64,000 nt of DNA from Pseudomonas fragi (lineage in GTDB: Bacteria > Pseudomonadota > Gammaproteobacteria > Pseudomonadales > Pseudomonadaceae). Below, piece by piece: positions 37,176-43,363 of the stretch (position 1 is the first letter of the stretch; every line of letters begins with the position of its first letter). Under the pieces are notes generated by a model. That model was not told the origin of the DNA. It saw only the letters and a list, made by a program, of their open reading frames with translations, and did no database searches. Location: contig NZ_LT629783.1 of the NCBI RefSeq assembly GCF_900105835.1, positions 2,659,001 through 2,723,000 of the forward strand. Direction: 5' to 3'. The translations under genes and the position numbers were made by a program.

Positions 37176-37262
37176 CTGCCCAGATGGTGAAATTGGTAGA
37201 CACGCCAGCTTCAGGTGCTGGTGATCGCAAGGTCGTGGAAGTTCGAGTCTTCTTCTGGGCAC
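37176..37262 (+). tRNA. tRNA-Leu (anticodon CAG), copy 1
   Basis: An 87 nt class II tRNA. The acceptor stem GCCCAGA pairs with TCTGGGC and the 3' ACCA is encoded. The anticodon arm CCAGC-TTCAGGT-GCTGG carries CAG, which reads CUG leucine codons. A long variable arm and the TTCGAGTC T-loop are visible. Confidence 0.97.
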
Positions 37263-37303
37263 CAATTCGAGATTGCAGAGTAGTACACTCTTCAGCCTCA
37301 CAC

Positions 37304-37327
37304 AAAAACCCGCGAAAGCGGGTTTTT
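37304..37327 (+). terminator. Terminator after tRNA-Leu copy 1
   Basis: AAAAACCCGCGAAAGCGGGTTTTT, stem of ten bp with a short loop and a T-run; a textbook rho-independent terminator. Confidence 0.93.
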
Positions 37328-37376
37328 GCATTTCAGGATCTTATAAGCCTCTGATTTAATAAAATTAAAACAGGGG

Positions 37377-37405
37377 TTTACAGATCGAAAAGCTATCCGT
37401 ATTAT
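37377..37405 (+). promoter_or_regulatory. Promoter of tRNA-Leu copy 2
   Basis: -35 TTTACA, a 17 bp spacer and -10 TATTAT, with a GCGCC discriminator, the same arrangement as copy 1 and slightly closer to consensus at -10. Confidence 0.87.
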
Positions 37406-37439
37406 GCGCCACATCAACAGCGGCAACGTTGCTGATACT

Positions 37440-37526
37440 GCCCAGATGGTGAAATTGGTAGACACGCCAGCTTCAGGTGCTGGTGACCGCAAGGTCGTGG
37501 AAGTTCGAGTCTTCTTCTGGGCACCA
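37440..37526 (+). tRNA. tRNA-Leu (anticodon CAG), copy 2
   Basis: 87 nt, differing from copy 1 by one base (GACCGC for GATCGC). It has the same CAG anticodon and encoded CCA. Each copy keeps its own promoter and terminator, so the whole transcription unit was duplicated. Confidence 0.97.
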
Positions 37527-37587: not shown

Positions 37588-37650
37588 AGTTTCCGGGATT
37601 CCTTCCTGCCCTCCCCGATACCTTTTATCTGCGGCCCAAAGGTCGTATTT

Positions 37651-37669
37651 GATAATCCATCTCATCCGC
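37651..37669 (+). promoter_or_regulatory. Candidate Fur box before the ECF sigma gene
   Basis: GATAATCCATCTCATCCGC matches the 19-base Fur consensus at 11 positions, mostly in the left half. Iron repression fits a FecI-type sigma gene, but the match is only moderate. Confidence 0.4.
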
Positions 37670-37718
37670 ATTAATATCCGGTCAACTTCAGCTCCCTGGC
37701 TCATCCTCCTGGATACCC

Positions 37719-38225
37719 GTGCCCGACACCAATGACAGGCTCCAGCTTTACCTGACGCATCGCATCGCTTTGGTCGACTATGCCGCCCCCATCGTGGGTT
37801 GCCGGGCCAAGGCAGAAGATGTGGTGCAAGACGCCTGGCTGCGTTTCAGCCAGGGCGCGGACAGTCTCATCCCGTTGACGCAGCCGGTGGGCTACCTTTA
37901 TCGCATCGTGCGCAACCTGGCCTTTGACCTCAATCGCCGGGCCACCCTGGAAAACCGCCACACCACCCACAGCGAATCATTGGACGAACACATTTCCAAC
38001 GCCCCTTCGCCCGAACAGCAAGCCTTGCATGTGGACGAACTGCGCAAATTGCAACATGCTTTGTCGCGCTTGCCGGAACGCACGCGTCAGGCATTTGTGT
38101 TGCATCGCCTGCAAGGCCTGACGTTCCAGCAAATCGGCACGCAACTTGGCATATCCGTGAGCCTGGCCCACCAATTGGTCCGCGACGCCCTGACCTACTG
38201 CGCGGAACAACTGAGTGATGACTGA
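37719..38225 (+). CDS. ECF sigma factor, FecI-like
   Basis: A 168-residue iron-starvation-type ECF sigma factor. Region 2 is at about residues 12-75 (AEDVVQDAWLRF) and region 4 at about 110-160 (LPERTRQAFVLHRLQGLTFQQIGTQLGIS, with a helix-turn-helix). The start is GTG at 37719, giving MPDTNDRLQLYLTHRIALVD. The stop overlaps the next gene by 8 bp. With the FecR and STN-domain receptor downstream, it should direct transcription of the receptor gene when a ligand binds at the surface. Only the group, not the target ligand, can be named. Confidence 0.88.
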   Translation: MPDTNDRLQLYLTHRIALVDYAAPIVGCRAKAEDVVQDAWLRFSQGADSLIPLTQPVGYLYRIVRNLAFDLNRRATLENRHTTHSESLDEHISNAPSPEQQALHVDELRKLQHALSRLPERTRQAFVLHRLQGLTFQQIGTQLGISVSLAHQLVRDALTYCAEQLSDD

Positions 38226-39192
38226 AAAACCGCCCCCGAACCCGATCTGGGAAACTGCACTGGACTGGCTGCTGCTGATCCAGGAGAACCCCCACGACCC
38301 CGAGCTGGCCGCGCGCCTGAACCACTGGCGGGCCAGCGCCCCCGAGCATGACGCGGCCTATCGCAAGGCGCTCAAGGTCTGGAGCTTGAGCGGCGAAGCC
38401 TTGAGCCTGCCGGTTGCTAAAGAGCCAGTGCCAGTGCCGACGGCCTTACGTCCTCCCGCGCGCCTGAGCCGGCGCAAGCGCGCACTGGTTGGTGCCGCCG
38501 TGGCCGCCAGCGCCCTGCTGATGTGGGGCCCCGACTGGCAAGCGATGCAAGCCGACTACCGCAGCCCCACCGCCGAACACCGCACCATCACACTGAGCGA
38601 TGGCAGCCAGATGCTTCTGGACAGCAACACCCTTGCCGATGTGCAGTTCAACCCCGAACAGCGAGAAGTCACGCTATTGCGCGGCCAGGCATTTTTTTCG
38701 GTGACTCACGATACCAACCGCGCCTTCTATGTGAACGCCGGCGACGTACGTGTTCGGGTGACCGGAACCGCGTTTGCAGTCAATCTGGATGACAACGGTG
38801 TCGATGTCAGTGTCGAAAGCGGCACGGTTGCCGTGCAAACACCGCAAGCATCGGCCTCGGCCACACACCTGCTGGGCCACGGCGACCAACTGCATTTCGC
38901 CGCAAACGAGCGGCAGACCCGCATCGTGCAACTGCCTCTGGAACAAATCGCGCCGTGGCGGCGCTGGCAACTGGTGGCGATCGATCAGTCTATCGATGAC
39001 GTGATCATGCAATTGCGCCGCTACCAGCCAGGCCTGATCGTGTTGACCGACAAAGCGCTGGGCCAGCGCCGCATCACCGCCGCCCTGAACCTGCGCGACC
39101 CCAAGCGCGCACTGCAAACTGCCATTGCCCCATTGGGCGGGCGCCTGCAGGACGGCGTGCCCTACACCCTGATCGTCTCAACCAAGCCCTGA
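38218..39192 (+). CDS. FecR-type anti-sigma factor
   Basis: A 324-residue single-pass inner-membrane protein. The cytoplasmic N-terminal anti-sigma domain holds ALDWLLLIQENPHDPELAAR and an RRKRA run before the membrane segment (about residues 86-103). The periplasmic FecR domain (about 110-300) contains TLSDGSQMLLDSNT and VRVTGTAFAV. The start overlaps the sigma gene by 8 bp. It receives the signal from the TonB receptor and releases or activates the sigma factor. A GTG at 38215 is an alternative start. Confidence 0.88.
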   Translation: MTEKPPPNPIWETALDWLLLIQENPHDPELAARLNHWRASAPEHDAAYRKALKVWSLSGEALSLPVAKEPVPVPTALRPPARLSRRKRALVGAAVAASALLMWGPDWQAMQADYRSPTAEHRTITLSDGSQMLLDSNTLADVQFNPEQREVTLLRGQAFFSVTHDTNRAFYVNAGDVRVRVTGTAFAVNLDDNGVDVSVESGTVAVQTPQASASATHLLGHGDQLHFAANERQTRIVQLPLEQIAPWRRWQLVAIDQSIDDVIMQLRRYQPGLIVLTDKALGQRRITAALNLRDPKRALQTAIAPLGGRLQDGVPYTLIVSTKP

Positions 39193-39199
39193 GCCTCCC

Positions 39200-39209
39200 T
39201 GTGGGAGCG
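39200..39209. repeat. REP arm remnant
   Basis: TGTGGGAGCG, the outer ten bases of a REP arm, begins 7 bp after the anti-sigma stop; the rest of the element is missing. Ten bases may be chance. Confidence 0.35.
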
Positions 39210-39230
39210 AAACTATTTTCATTTATTTCT

Positions 39231-39257
39231 GGAAATCCTGAAGGCCCGGGAGTCTTT
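39231..39257 (+). promoter_or_regulatory. FecI-type promoter before the TonB receptor
   Basis: GGAAAT (39231-39236), then 15 bases, then GTCTT. This resembles the E. coli fecA promoter as recalled (GGAAAAT, 15 bases, TGTCC), which FecI reads. It lies about 65 bp before the receptor start. Confidence 0.5.
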
Positions 39258-39323
39258 ACCTACGAACGTCACTGATAAAGATTCGCATTAGTGACTATGG
39301 CGTTTCATTTCGTAGGTCACCTC

Positions 39324-42095
39324 ATGCCTTCTTCGCGTTTGCGTTGTGTCAGTGTTGCTCGTTATCGATCGTTATCCCTGGCCCTGCTGCTCGGCCTGCC
39401 CACTCTGGCTATCGGCGCCAGCCAGGTGGCTGACGCGCAAATCCAGCAACAACTGCACTTCCAGATCCCGGCCCAGCCTTTGGCCAGCGCCCTGATTGCG
39501 TTTTCCCAACAGTCGGGCTGGCAGGTCAGTGCGGAAAGCACCTTGCTCAACGGCCTGAACAGCTCGCCGGTCGATGCCCGCACCAGCCCCGAAAAAGCCT
39601 TGGCCCACCTGTTGCGCGGCACGGGCATGCAATGGGAAGTGACCTCCACTGACAGCGCCTCGATCCTGCCGCCCGCCCAAAGCGATGTGCTGCAAATCAA
39701 AAGCACACCCATCACCGCCATGGAGCCGGTATTTCAAGGCGAACAGGTGATCGACCACCAGATGATCGAAAACCTGCCCTCGGGCAACGGGGACATCACC
39801 AGCCTGCTGCGCACCAACCCCAATGTGCAGTTCGACAACAGCCAGTTGAGCAGCAAAAACCCGGGTGAAATAGCCCCCGCCGATATCAGCATCAACGGCG
39901 CACGACCCTGGCAGAACCTGTTTATCGTTGACGGCATGAGCATGAACAACGACCTGGACCCGGGTAACAGCAACGACGACTTCGATGAGATCCCGGGACG
40001 CAGCCAGGGCCTGGCGCTGGACACCGACCTGCTGGAAAACATCAAGGTCTACGACAGCAACGTACCGGTGGAATTTGGCGGCTTCAATGGCGGTGTAGTC
40101 GAGGCCAATACCCGCGATCCCAGCAAGGAACTGCACGGCAAGGTGTCGGTACAAATGACCCGCTCCGAGTGGACGCGCTATCACCTGAACAAAGACGACC
40201 CGGACCTGGAAAACTTCAAGGCCGGCTTTGGCAACAACTACCAGCCCGACTTCGAAAAAATCATCACCCGCGCCACCCTCGAAGGCCACCTGACCGACAA
40301 CTTCGGCTTGCTGGGCACCTTTTCGCGCAAAGAATCCACCATGCCGACCCGCCTGTTTTCCGTAGCCAACCAGACCGAAACGGCAATGGAGACGGAAGAA
40401 CAATCGCGGCGCATCGACAACTATTTCCTCAAGGCCACCTGGCAAATCAACGAGGACTGGAAGCTCGATACCACCCTGACCCACGCACCGGAAACCGCCC
40501 GCACTTACGGCCCCAACTCACTGGTGTCCGGCCGCGATATGGATGCCGGTGGCGACAGTATCAGTACGCGCCTGGTATGGAACGCCCCCTTGGCCCGGGT
40601 AGAGCAGAACCTGAGCTGGAGCGAGCTGAACACCTCACGCTATTCCGACCGCGACTACATGATCCTGTGGCGTACCTCGGCCAGCCGCGACTGGAGCACC
40701 TCGGCATTCGCCACCGAAGGCGGTTTTGGTGATATTGAAGAAACCCAGAAAACCCTGGCCTATAAACTCAAGGCCGACTGGAACAGCTTCAAATGGCTGG
40801 GGGTGGATCACTCGCTGCAGACCGGCCTTGAGCTGTCGCAGAACTCGGCCAGCTATGAACGTGGCACGCCCTACAGCAGCTACTCGGTGGACAAGGCCAC
40901 GTCATGCACCGGCAATGACCCACTGTGCTCAATGGCGCCCACGATCAATGGCTGGCCTGGCCAGTATGCGAACAAGATGACCGTCACCCAGGGCAAAATT
41001 GCCTTCGATACGCGTTCATGGGCGCTGTACCTGCAAGACGAAATGCACTACAAGCGCCTCACCGTCAGGCCCGGCATCCGCGTGGACGGCGACAACTACA
41101 TGAATCAGGTCACCTTCGCCCCGCGCCTGGCCACCGAACTGGACGTGTTTGGCGATGGCAAGACCCGCCTCACCGCCGGCGCCAACCGTTACTACGGACG
41201 CAACCTTTACGCCTATCGCCTGCGTGACGGCATTGCCTCGATGAGCACGGAGTACACCCGCAAGACGCAAACGTCCGCCTGGGAGCTGAGCAAGCACACC
41301 CCCAACGACAGCAAGTTCAACCAGCTCAAGGTGCCTTACGATGACGAACTGACCCTGGGCCTGAGCCATGTGCAATGGAACACCGAGTTCGCCGTCAAAT
41401 ACGTCAACCGCAAGGGCCGCGACCAGATCAGCCGCGCTTGGGGCGCACAAATCGGTGAGCCCTCCGAAGACACCTCCACCCTGGCCGCCAACTACTACAC
41501 CTACTACAACGGCGGCAAAAGCGATGCCGATATCTACACCCTGAGCATCACCCCCCTGCAACCCTTCAACCTGGGCAGCACCCGCACCACTGCGCAGTTT
41601 GCGATGGACTGGAGCAAGATCAACAACACCGGTCTGTCCAGCTACAGTGCCAGCATCGGCGCTATCTACGTAGAAGACCCGACGATCCAGTACGACGGCA
41701 AGTTCATGAAGTATTCCGACATGCCCGCCAGCAACTACAACCGCCCCTGGACCGCGCGCCTGACCACCGTGACCGAAGTCGAGCCCCTGCACCTGACCTG
41801 GACCAACTTTCTGCGTTATCGCGACGGCTACCGGCGCATTGCCTCCACCAACAAAACGGTCGAGCACGAAGGCAGCAGTGTCCATGTCTGGGAAGAAACT
41901 CCGTTCTCCGGGGCACTGACATGGGACACCCGTGTGGCCTGGGAGATGCCCACCGCCAAGGATCAGGCCGTATTCGTCAATCTCGACGTCAGCAACCTGC
42001 TGGACAAGACCATTGTCAGCTCCACCGACACCAACGGCGTACTCAATTATGAAGTCGGCCGCCAGTTCATGCTGGAAGTGGGGTACAAGTTTTGA
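39324..42095 (+). CDS. TonB-dependent outer-membrane receptor with STN signalling domain
   Basis: A 923-residue outer-membrane transporter. After a signal peptide (to about residue 33) comes a secretin/TonB N-terminal (STN) domain at about 45-110 (FQIPAQPLASALIAFSQQSG and AHLLRGTGMQWEV), which touches FecR in the periplasm. The plug (about 135-260) includes IENLPSGNGDITSLLRTNPN and ISINGARPWQNLFIVDGMSM; the barrel follows and ends in F (EVGYKF). I took the ATG at 39324; an ATG at 39297 is possible. The ligand is not deducible. The stop overlaps the TTG start of the peroxidase gene. Confidence 0.9.
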   Translation: MPSSRLRCVSVARYRSLSLALLLGLPTLAIGASQVADAQIQQQLHFQIPAQPLASALIAFSQQSGWQVSAESTLLNGLNSSPVDARTSPEKALAHLLRGTGMQWEVTSTDSASILPPAQSDVLQIKSTPITAMEPVFQGEQVIDHQMIENLPSGNGDITSLLRTNPNVQFDNSQLSSKNPGEIAPADISINGARPWQNLFIVDGMSMNNDLDPGNSNDDFDEIPGRSQGLALDTDLLENIKVYDSNVPVEFGGFNGGVVEANTRDPSKELHGKVSVQMTRSEWTRYHLNKDDPDLENFKAGFGNNYQPDFEKIITRATLEGHLTDNFGLLGTFSRKESTMPTRLFSVANQTETAMETEEQSRRIDNYFLKATWQINEDWKLDTTLTHAPETARTYGPNSLVSGRDMDAGGDSISTRLVWNAPLARVEQNLSWSELNTSRYSDRDYMILWRTSASRDWSTSAFATEGGFGDIEETQKTLAYKLKADWNSFKWLGVDHSLQTGLELSQNSASYERGTPYSSYSVDKATSCTGNDPLCSMAPTINGWPGQYANKMTVTQGKIAFDTRSWALYLQDEMHYKRLTVRPGIRVDGDNYMNQVTFAPRLATELDVFGDGKTRLTAGANRYYGRNLYAYRLRDGIASMSTEYTRKTQTSAWELSKHTPNDSKFNQLKVPYDDELTLGLSHVQWNTEFAVKYVNRKGRDQISRAWGAQIGEPSEDTSTLAANYYTYYNGGKSDADIYTLSITPLQPFNLGSTRTTAQFAMDWSKINNTGLSSYSASIGAIYVEDPTIQYDGKFMKYSDMPASNYNRPWTARLTTVTEVEPLHLTWTNFLRYRDGYRRIASTNKTVEHEGSSVHVWEETPFSGALTWDTRVAWEMPTAKDQAVFVNLDVSNLLDKTIVSSTDTNGVLNYEVGRQFMLEVGYKF

Positions 42096-43189
42096 AGCCC
42101 GCCGCGCTCCTACTCGGCCTGACCCTGGGCAATCTGACCTTGAACGCAGCCGCCTGCGACGAACAGGCCGCCGACTACAAAACGTGCATCGCCCAACAAT
42201 ACCGCCAGCCCGTCGCTCAATGGCCAGCCCCCCAGGTGGACGCCGATGTGCAATGGCAGGAAATGGCCGCCCTGCCCGCCCACGCCCCCGCACCACCGGA
42301 AAACCCGTTCAGCGAGGCCAAGGCGGCGCTGGGCAAACAACTGTTCAACGACCCGAAACTGTCGCGCTCCGGGCAGATTGCCTGCGCCTCGTGCCATGAA
42401 GCCGACATGGCCTTTGCCGATGGCCGCCGCGTCTCGTTCGGCCATGACCGCCAAAGCGGCCGGCGCAATGCCCCCAGCCTGGTGATGAGCGGCTACAGCC
42501 CGGCGCTGTTCTGGGATGGTCGCGGCGGCACTCTGGAACAGCAGGCCATGCACCCCATCATTGACCCGGTGGAAATGGCCTTCGATATCCCGCAACTGCT
42601 TGAGCGGCTCAATGCCGACGCGGCCTACCGCGAGCAGTTCGGGCAGGTGTTCGGCCCCGGCCCGATCACCACCGAACATACCGCCCAGGCCCTCGCCACC
42701 TTCCAGCGCACGCTGGTCAGCGCCACGCGCAATACCGCCTTCGAGCAACTGCTGCGCGGGCGCCCGCAACGCATGAGCGATGAGCAGCTCTACGGCCTGC
42801 ATCTGTTTCGCACCAAGGCGCGCTGCATGAACTGCCACTTCGGCCCGGCGCTGAGCGACGAGCAGTTTCATAACGTCGGCCTGAGTTACTACGGGCGTAA
42901 ATACGAAGACCTCGGGCGCTACGAAGTAACGCGCAAACCAGAAGATGTGGGGGCATTTCGCACGCCGTCATTACGCCTGGTGATGAAAACCGCGCCGTGG
43001 ATGCACAACGGCCTGTTCGTCAACATGGAAGGCACGCTGGCGTTCTACAACATGGGCATGCCGCGCCCGCGCCCCAACGCGCAGCAGACCGACGATCCGC
43101 TGTTCCCGCGCACCAGCGACCGGCTCAAGGCGCTGAACATGGACAGGGACGAACTGCGCGCCCTACGCAGTTTTCTCGACACGCTGTAG
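42092..43189 (+). CDS. Di-heme cytochrome c peroxidase (MauG/CcpA family)
   Basis: A 365-residue periplasmic protein with two CxxCH sites, CASCH (residues 98-102) and CMNCH (245-249), and family motifs FRTPSLR (about 289) and TAPWMHNGLF (about 300). The N-terminus has a short signal peptide (MKPAALLLGLTLGNLTLNAA); the next residue after ACDEQ is polar. The start is TTG at 42092 and overlaps the receptor stop by four bases (TTGA), so the two genes are coupled. Members either reduce H2O2 or oxidise a protein, as MauG and MbnH do. Its tie to the receptor operon suggests a role in metal-ligand handling, which is inference. Confidence 0.85.
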   Translation: MKPAALLLGLTLGNLTLNAAACDEQAADYKTCIAQQYRQPVAQWPAPQVDADVQWQEMAALPAHAPAPPENPFSEAKAALGKQLFNDPKLSRSGQIACASCHEADMAFADGRRVSFGHDRQSGRRNAPSLVMSGYSPALFWDGRGGTLEQQAMHPIIDPVEMAFDIPQLLERLNADAAYREQFGQVFGPGPITTEHTAQALATFQRTLVSATRNTAFEQLLRGRPQRMSDEQLYGLHLFRTKARCMNCHFGPALSDEQFHNVGLSYYGRKYEDLGRYEVTRKPEDVGAFRTPSLRLVMKTAPWMHNGLFVNMEGTLAFYNMGMPRPRPNAQQTDDPLFPRTSDRLKALNMDRDELRALRSFLDTL

Positions 43190-43203
43190 GCAGCACCTTG
43201 CTG

Positions 43204-43290
43204 TGTGGGAGCGGGCTTGCTCGCGATGCAGACGACGCGACCTACCAGTAAAACGGCAGCGCTCCCATCGCAGGCAAGCCCGCTCCCACA
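43204..43290. repeat. REPIN 12
   Basis: 87 bp element, 14 bp after the peroxidase stop. The left arm is the common type; the right arm carries ATCGCAGGCAAGCCCGCTCC. Confidence 0.93.
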
Positions 43291-43363
43291 AAAGCAGAGC
43301 CGGTCGCCAACATCACAGTTCGTCGCACTTGCGCAATTGGACGCTGGGTCAAGCGCACTTGAG

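What the first reader, a model, noticed from the sequence alone, without database searches (positions are those of the whole stretch)
37651..43189. Sigma/anti-sigma/STN-receptor/di-heme peroxidase operon, possibly a metallophore uptake system
Four genes lie in one direction with tight coupling: ECF sigma and FecR overlap by 8 bp, receptor and peroxidase by 4 bp (TTGA). The STN-domain receptor makes cell-surface signalling likely. A di-heme MauG-type peroxidase cotranslated with a TonB receptor is unusual. Methanobactin loci combine a sigma factor, an anti-sigma factor, a TonB receptor and a di-heme peroxidase (MbnI, MbnR, MbnT, MbnH), so this set resembles that uptake part without MbnA, MbnB, MbnC or MbnP. 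It could take up a copper or iron chelate made by other species and oxidise it or a partner. Ligand and function are inference.
Basis: partly seen in the sequence, partly recalled or inferred. Interest (0 to 1): 0.75.

Follow-up and report, generated by a model that had tools for sequence, protein, structure and literature searches.

The report
Protein-import receptor paired with di-heme oxidase
A four-gene set in a food-spoilage Pseudomonas pairs an outer-membrane receptor of the kind that swallows whole iron-carrying proteins with a two-heme oxidising enzyme in the place where related bacteria keep a protein-cutting enzyme, which hints that some bacteria may take iron from captured proteins by oxidation instead of digestion.

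Summary
The four genes are real and tightly coupled as described. The methanobactin reading fails. The receptor belongs to the FusA/YddB family of protein-importing TonB-dependent transporters: its only full-length PDB sequence matches (E 1e-99, 9e-95) and the two best Foldseek matches. Among 78 named relatives of the receptor (the best of 265), the slot downstream holds a di-heme enzyme in 37, a FusC-like M16 protease in 35, both in 5, neither in 1. The enzyme falls in a clade apart from the MbnH and CcpA types sampled; MauG proper was tested only by family score. It has a Tyr where CcpA types have the Met heme ligand, so it looks MauG-type, an oxidant. Of 10 close members found by enzyme searches, 9 sit beside a FusA-family receptor. 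Best explanation: a Fus-like import system, switched on by its own FecI/FecR pair, in which a MauG-type peroxidase replaces the processing protease and acts on the imported cargo. That FusA homologues without FusC often have a cytochrome c peroxidase neighbour was published in 2019; the Tyr assignment, clade, N-terminal extension and double operons are added here. Cargo, chemistry and iron are inference.

The parts
37645..37663 (+). conserved AT-rich block upstream of the sigma gene (TTTGATAAT...), weak Fur-box-like match
   Evidence: ATTTGATAAT kept in 8 of 8 aligned P. fragi-group sequences; 12 of 19 positions to a recalled Fur consensus, a score that 22 places in the window reach or exceed: suggestive only
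37719..38225 (+). FecI-type ECF sigma factor, 168 aa
   Evidence: PF04542, PF08281
38218..39192 (+). FecR-type anti-sigma factor (GTG at 38215 also possible)
   Evidence: PF04773, PF16220; NCBIfam FecR model 102 bits, below its cut-off of 385
39231..39254 (+). candidate promoter GGAAAT-N15-GTC (FecI-type by recalled consensus) upstream of the receptor
   Evidence: present in 8 of 8 aligned P. fragi-group sequences; in 11 of 29 peroxidase loci with FecR, 0 of 30 protease loci with FecR, 0 of 5 double loci, 0 of 14 loci without FecR, and 8 of 4202 control windows
39268..39295 (.). 28-base block GTCACT...AGTGAC in the receptor leader; overlaps the GTG of the longest ORF, so ATG 39324 is the likelier start
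   Evidence: seen in 8 of 8 aligned sequences
39324..42095 (+). FusA/YddB-family TonB-dependent receptor, 923 aa from ATG 39324 (934 aa from GTG 39291)
   Evidence: 4zgv FusA E 1e-99, 6ofr YddB 9e-95; Foldseek 9.5e-64 and 2.3e-57, next match 6e-29
39522..39641 (+). STN signalling domain of the receptor
   Evidence: PF07660 20.8 bits, 26 bits, both below the curated cut-off of 28.4; PDB matches of this part to HasR, FemA, PupA (pseudobactin 358 receptor) and PupB
42092..43189 (+). di-heme MauG-type peroxidase/oxidase, 365 aa, TTG start, signal peptide by eye
   Evidence: PF03150 166 bits; one clade with the receptor-linked rows; model pLDDT 84.8
42155..42301 (+). N-terminal extension of this family, residues 22-70 (C22, C32, Y37, W44-P45)
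   Evidence: conserved in 45 sequences and 22; modelled with pLDDT about 85-97 over residues 21-80
42383..42397 (+). first heme motif CASCH (C98-H102)
   Evidence: sequence; C98, C101, H102 invariant in 22 of 22
42824..42838 (+). second heme motif CMNCH (C245-H249)
   Evidence: sequence; C245, C248, H249 invariant in 22 of 22
43046..43048 (+). Y319, inferred distal Tyr ligand of the six-coordinate heme
   Evidence: Tyr in 44 of 45 receptor-linked sequences; this column is Met in 23 rows and Tyr in the other 40 of 63

Best explanation
A Fus-like protein-import operon. Binding of a cargo outside the cell signals through the receptor's STN domain and the FecR-like protein to the FecI-like sigma factor, which transcribes receptor plus enzyme. 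The FusA/YddB-type receptor, powered by TonB, brings an iron-containing protein or large peptide into the periplasm. There the co-translated MauG-type di-heme enzyme, in the place that FusC protease holds in sister operons, acts on the cargo, most likely by H2O2-driven oxidation that frees or modifies its metal centre or prepares it for proteolysis. Released iron could enter by the adjacent HitAB-type ABC transporter. Shown by computation: operon, receptor family, exchange of enzyme and protease, separate clade, Tyr at the ligand column. Inferred: cargo is a protein, the enzyme acts on it, oxidation rather than reduction, iron release, use of HitAB.
For: Receptor family by sequence and fold. 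Exchange at the same slot in 78 loci: 37 enzyme, 35 M16, 5 both, 1 neither. M16 identity: the 35 are 42-100% identical to the L090 protein by BLAST; Pfam M16 domains in 7 of 7 scanned, 5 of the 35 and 2 of the 5; the L090 protein matches PDB 6b03/6brs/6b05, named only 'putative zinc protease' there and recalled to be FusC, at E 1e-171, and PqqL 6ofs at 4e-38. Enzyme clade: 22 receptor-linked rows on one side of a branch, SH-aLRT 98. Converse test: of the first 18 of 53 match rows of a 398-genome search, all 8 at 411 bits or more have a FusA-family receptor in the same cluster; 2 near 340 bits and 8 at 272-301 bits have none detected. Of 45 other CCP_MauG/MbnH loci, only L153 scores over 301 bits with the enzyme profile and only L153 has a receptor match within 1.5 kb. 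The own genome has one PF03150 gene, this one, and no FusC orthologue (best 28%, E 4e-13). Receptor and enzyme distances correlate, r 0.75 against a permutation maximum of 0.45 over 44 loci. One distant cluster has TonB, ExbD and ExbB genes between enzyme and receptor, another a TonB gene overlapping the enzyme's end. Published: Fus imports ferredoxin and FusC cleaves it (passages of PMC13253070).
Against: No ligand, expression or biochemical data. FusA and YddB are about 28% identical to the receptor, so the cargo may differ or be a small molecule. PqqL and YddB did not support growth under iron limitation in LB (section title in PMC6793856). Only one switch between enzyme and protease is needed inside the sampled receptor family, so the exchange there is one event. 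The 78 loci are the best of 265, not a random sample. Tyr-His ligation does not prove substrate oxidation: BthA has it and turns over H2O2 (abstract and passages of PMC6405878). No Trp was seen by eye at the recalled place of MauG Trp199. Fur-like sites are not above background. One plasmid member (L249, 412 bits) lies near an ordinary TBDT on the other strand. One divergent receptor (L141) has neither enzyme nor M16 by BLAST.
Confidence: 0.5

Rival explanations
1. Same import system, but the enzyme reduces the imported protein so that it drops its iron cofactor without proteolysis (the suggestion of Grinter et al. 2019).
For: Printed in PMC6793856 section 6. The enzyme family is redox active.
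Against: The ligand column of the six-coordinate heme is Tyr, the MauG type, not the Met of peroxidases that are readily half-reduced (passages).
Confidence: 0.12
2. The enzyme is a periplasmic H2O2 scavenger that guards the cell while iron is taken up, with no action on the cargo.
Against: The clade goes with one receptor family: the FusA-family profile found no receptor at the 10 lower-scoring clusters checked. It alternates with a protease.
Confidence: 0.15
3. The enzyme matures the receptor or another periplasmic partner by oxidising residues, as is proposed for MbnH and MbnP (recalled).
For: MauG/MbnH-type ligand column; Foldseek best match 6e1c, a MauG-like protein of copper homeostasis, recalled to be MbnH; translational coupling to the receptor.
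Against: Among 39 loci no further gene family appears in more than 6, apart from clusters that overlap these genes on the other strand (top 25 clusters, judged by position). Protease-type operons have close receptors without the enzyme.
Confidence: 0.12
4. Uptake of methanobactin or another small copper or iron chelate.
For: Gene classes resemble mbnIRTH; four Methylosinus MbnT carry N-terminal extensions with FecIR-like neighbours (passages of PMC3621798).
Against: Receptor family; MbnH cut-off not met; separate clade.
Confidence: 0.06

Closest known systems
Fus ferredoxin uptake system (Pectobacterium) and YddB-PqqL (E. coli), the protease-associated import systems
   Same: Receptor family by sequence and fold; cargo-processing enzyme next to the receptor; M16 protease in the same slot in sister operons.
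   Different: Di-heme enzyme in place of the M16 protease; FecI/FecR and STN signalling present; no TonB gene among the 7 proteins domain-scanned at the locus.
FusA homologues with a cytochrome c peroxidase neighbour (Grinter et al. 2019, PMC6793856)
   Same: The association itself, e.g. in an Achromobacter cluster (passage).
   Different: Here the enzyme is shown to form one clade with a Tyr ligand column and an N-terminal extension, and operons with both modules are found. The paper's S1 Table was not read and may list this locus.
MbnH/MauG/BthA di-heme enzymes
   Different: Below MbnH and MauG cut-offs; separate clade from MbnH; different neighbours.
FecIRA cell-surface signalling
   Same: ECF sigma, FecR, STN receptor in this order.
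   Different: Receptor is not FecA; regulates a receptor-oxidase pair.

Membership tests
FusA/YddB protein-importing TBDT family | full-length sequence homology to FusA and YddB | tested here: met
   E 1e-99 and 9e-95, no other full-length PDB match at E 0.001
FusA/YddB protein-importing TBDT family | FusA-like barrel and large extracellular loops | tested here: met
FusA/YddB protein-importing TBDT family | import of a folded protein | not testable with these tools
   needs experiment
Protease-associated import system | FusC/PqqL-type M16 protease at the locus | tested here: not met
   none in the operon; no orthologue in the genome; so not filed as a PAIS
Fus system | dedicated TonB homologue FusB | tested here: not met
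   no TonB among the 7 proteins scanned from 37.7 to 48.1 kb; rest of genome not searched
Methanobactin uptake set (MbnIRTH) | MbnH equivalog score | tested here: not met
   192 bits, cut-off 362.85
Methanobactin uptake set (MbnIRTH) | enzyme groups with MbnH | tested here: not met
   4 over-cut-off MbnH rows form a clade of their own, SH-aLRT 99
Methanobactin uptake set (MbnIRTH) | MbnP partner | tested here: inconclusive
   no match, but no control genome rang
Methanobactin uptake set (MbnIRTH) | receptor groups with MbnT | not tested
   no MbnT sequence was fetched
MauG | TIGR03791 equivalog score | tested here: not met
   190 bits, cut-off 443.85
MauG-type (Tyr-His) di-heme enzymes, broad sense | Tyr as distal ligand of the six-coordinate heme | tested here: met
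   by alignment column only; no spectroscopy
CcpA-type cytochrome c peroxidase | Met as distal ligand | tested here: not met
   Tyr in that column; 23 Met rows form another clade
FecIRA cell-surface signalling | ECF sigma, FecR, receptor with STN | tested here: met
   STN below the Pfam gathering score but matched to solved STN-bearing receptors
FecIRA cell-surface signalling | sigma transcribes the receptor gene | tested here: inconclusive
   conserved GGAAAT-N15-GTC only in the nearer relatives

The most novel reading that the evidence does not exclude
Oxidative metal piracy: a family of Fus-like systems imports a foreign iron protein and, instead of digesting it, uses a dedicated MauG-type di-heme enzyme to oxidise the cargo (its metal centre or specific residues) so that iron is released, making protein oxidation an alternative to proteolysis in nutrient import.
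Probability: 0.3. Interest if true: 0.85.

Novelty: new variant of a known kind. Interest (0 to 1): 0.55.

Why it matters
Iron import from whole proteins is known in detail for few systems, and the processing step is thought to be proteolysis. A clade of Tyr-type di-heme enzymes tied to this receptor family, alternating with the protease, gives two open questions one handle: what the uncharacterised MauG relatives act on, and how Fus-like systems without FusC free iron. Food-spoilage Pseudomonas offer a simple genetic test.

Tried and rejected
Methanobactin uptake: rejected on receptor family, MbnH cut-off and tree.

CcpA-type scavenger: phmmer ranks N. europaea peroxidase first by bits, but the ligand column and tree disagree.

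Fur boxes: 12 to 13 of 19 matches upstream of sigma, receptor and hitA, but 22 places in the window score 12 or more; kept as suggestive only.

FecI-type promoter in all relatives: found in 11 of 29 peroxidase loci with FecR, 9 of them P. fragi group, and in 0 of 30 protease loci with FecR, 0 of 5 double loci and 0 of 14 loci without FecR.

A further conserved gene that would name the cargo: clustering ORFs of 39 loci showed no further family in more than 6 loci, leaving out clusters that overlap the operon genes on the other strand; only the 25 largest clusters were printed and they were not domain-scanned.

Literature searches for the set, in an open-licence library only, gave PMC6793856 as the one paper found on the association. 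They were judged by listing, except that PMC6793856 was read in part and PMC13253070 searched (no 'peroxidase'). The P. fragi iron paper of 1996 was seen only as a reference entry.

Rows dropped: 12 near-duplicate or broken receptor rows before the tree, 73 of 85 used. For the enzyme tree 22 of 45 receptor-linked rows, and 41 of 45 other loci with 4 duplicates removed; those 45 loci are the best-scoring ones that made into loci, not a random sample. L126 was also left out of the distance test.
Full report
WHAT IS THERE. The window is Pseudomonas (P. bubulae/P. fragi group by its nearest named relative, 98% receptor identity) and lies in a single 5.07 Mb contig. ORFs and overlaps match the finding: FecI-type sigma 37719-38225, FecR-like 38218-39192, receptor to 42095, di-heme enzyme 42092-43189. 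The longest receptor ORF starts at a GTG inside a conserved 28-base block; ATG 39324 is the likelier start. The TTGA junction of receptor and enzyme is kept in 9 of 9 group loci.

THE SLOT AFTER THE RECEPTOR. A scan of named genomes with an 18-sequence receptor alignment found 265 relatives and kept the best, 78 distinct loci. Downstream of the receptor: di-heme enzyme in 37, FusC-like M16 in 35, both in 5, neither in 1; sigma plus FecR upstream in 29 of 37, 30 of 35, 5 of 5 and 0 of 1. The 35 M16 proteins are 42-100% identical to that of L090; PF00675 and PF05193 were found in 7 of 7 scanned, 5 of these 35 and 2 of the 5 double loci. The L090 protein matches PDB 6b03/6brs at 1e-171 (named putative zinc protease there; recalled to be FusC) and PqqL at 4e-38. 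The five double operons are Azonexus/Dechloromonas; their M16 is only 25-32% identical to the L090 protein. In the receptor tree (73 of 85 rows) the 30 FusC-type rows are one side of a branch (SH-aLRT 99) and the fewest changes between enzyme and protease are 2 with outgroups. So inside this family the exchange is essentially one event; I do not claim repeated swaps there. Of six divergent receptors, two from other gammaproteobacterial families (24-27% identical) have the enzyme beside them at 44-50% identity, three Pseudomonas ones have a distant M16, and one has neither. Within Pseudomonas, 22 of 199 genomes hold a receptor relative at E 1e-30; across the class, 4 of 369 at E 1e-60; both counts include the window's own genome.

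CONVERSE TEST. Searching 398 genomes of the phylum with the enzyme alignment gave 53 match rows in 49 genomes at E 1e-70. I examined the surroundings of the first 18 rows. All 8 at 411 bits or more, the own genome included, have a FusA-family receptor in the cluster; at 2 near 340 bits and 8 at 272-301 bits the receptor profile found none. Some of the latter contigs end close to the gene (for example L232), so absence there is weaker. In one of the 8 (L221) the receptor is on the other strand with TonB, ExbD and ExbB genes between; in another (L222) a TonB gene overlaps the enzyme's end. Independently, of 45 loci fetched by MbnH and CCP_MauG family models, one (L153, the same place as L143) scored above 301 bits with the enzyme profile, and it alone had a receptor match within its 1.5 kb flanks. 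Two plasmid hits add one agreeing case (L248, receptor profile 153 bits, though no Pfam domain was called) and one disagreeing case (L249, 412 bits, an ordinary PF00593-type TBDT on the other strand). That makes 9 of 10 close members found by enzyme searches. Receptor and enzyme distances correlate over 44 loci (r 0.75, maximum of 2000 permutations 0.45), as expected of genes inherited together.

REGULATION AND SITE. A GGAAAT-N15-GTC element and its surroundings are conserved upstream of the receptor in the P. fragi group and reach two more distant loci, but not the protease operons. Fur-like sequences are not above background. The operon sits between two tRNA-Leu(cag) genes and an ABC transporter pair, solute-binding protein and permease; the name HitAB is recalled. 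In 5 of 8 Pseudomonas relatives examined rnr, the two tRNA genes and hitA adjoin with no operon, so the P. fragi group most likely gained it there.

MECHANISM AND LIMITS. Sister operons put a FusC-type protease where this one has a di-heme enzyme. In Fus, the protease cleaves imported ferredoxin to release its 2Fe-2S cluster (PMC13253070 passages). The simplest inference is that the enzyme also acts on what the receptor imports. Grinter et al. 2019 noted the peroxidase neighbour and suggested reduction of the cargo (PMC6793856 section 6). The Tyr ligand column makes oxidation the better guess, but BthA shows that Tyr types can also turn over H2O2. Cargo, chemistry and iron supply are untested.

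NOVELTY. The association is in print. New here, as far as reach in an open-licence library: single clade and Tyr-type identity of the receptor-linked enzymes, their N-terminal extension, the score boundary of the linkage (18 rows checked), and operons holding both modules. Hence a new variant of a known kind.

PAPERS, AS SEEN. PMC6793856: abstract and outline, passages, results section 6, discussion. PMC6405878: abstract and outline, passages. Passages only: PMC3621798, PMC13253070, PMC5095587, PMC7921472, PMC12096840. Others: search listings.

Noticed in passing
window 37178-37526 and 43423; L240-L247: The operon occupies a gap between two tRNA-Leu(cag) genes and hitA; 5 of 8 relatives have rnr-tRNA-tRNA-hitA without it.
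   Followed up: yes
window 39268-39295: GTCACT-N16-AGTGAC block with inverted ends in the receptor leader, seen in 8 of 8 aligned P. fragi-group sequences; role unknown.
   Followed up: no
L078, L085-L087, L089: Azonexus/Dechloromonas operons carry receptor, di-heme enzyme and an M16 protease in a row; their M16 is far from FusC.
   Followed up: partly
L226, L227: The nearest enzyme relatives without a FusA-type receptor (about 340 bits) keep the WPAP extension and lie beside ORFs that read like an NMT1-type ABC transporter and another solute-binding protein (not domain-scanned).
   Followed up: partly
L081 (Pseudomonas dryadis): A second sigma-FecR-receptor set follows directly after the enzyme, so two systems stand in tandem.
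   Followed up: no
L076 and L114 (Stutzerimonas kirkiae P4C): One strain has both an enzyme-type and a protease-type operon, on different contigs.
   Followed up: no
window about 43199-43292: REP-like inverted repeat (GTGGGAGCGGGCTTGC...) between the enzyme and hitA, read by eye.
   Followed up: no
literature, PMC7921472: A passage treats FUSC family (fusaric acid resistance) genes of P. fragi as the FusC ferredoxin protease; it looks like a mix-up of names.
   Followed up: no
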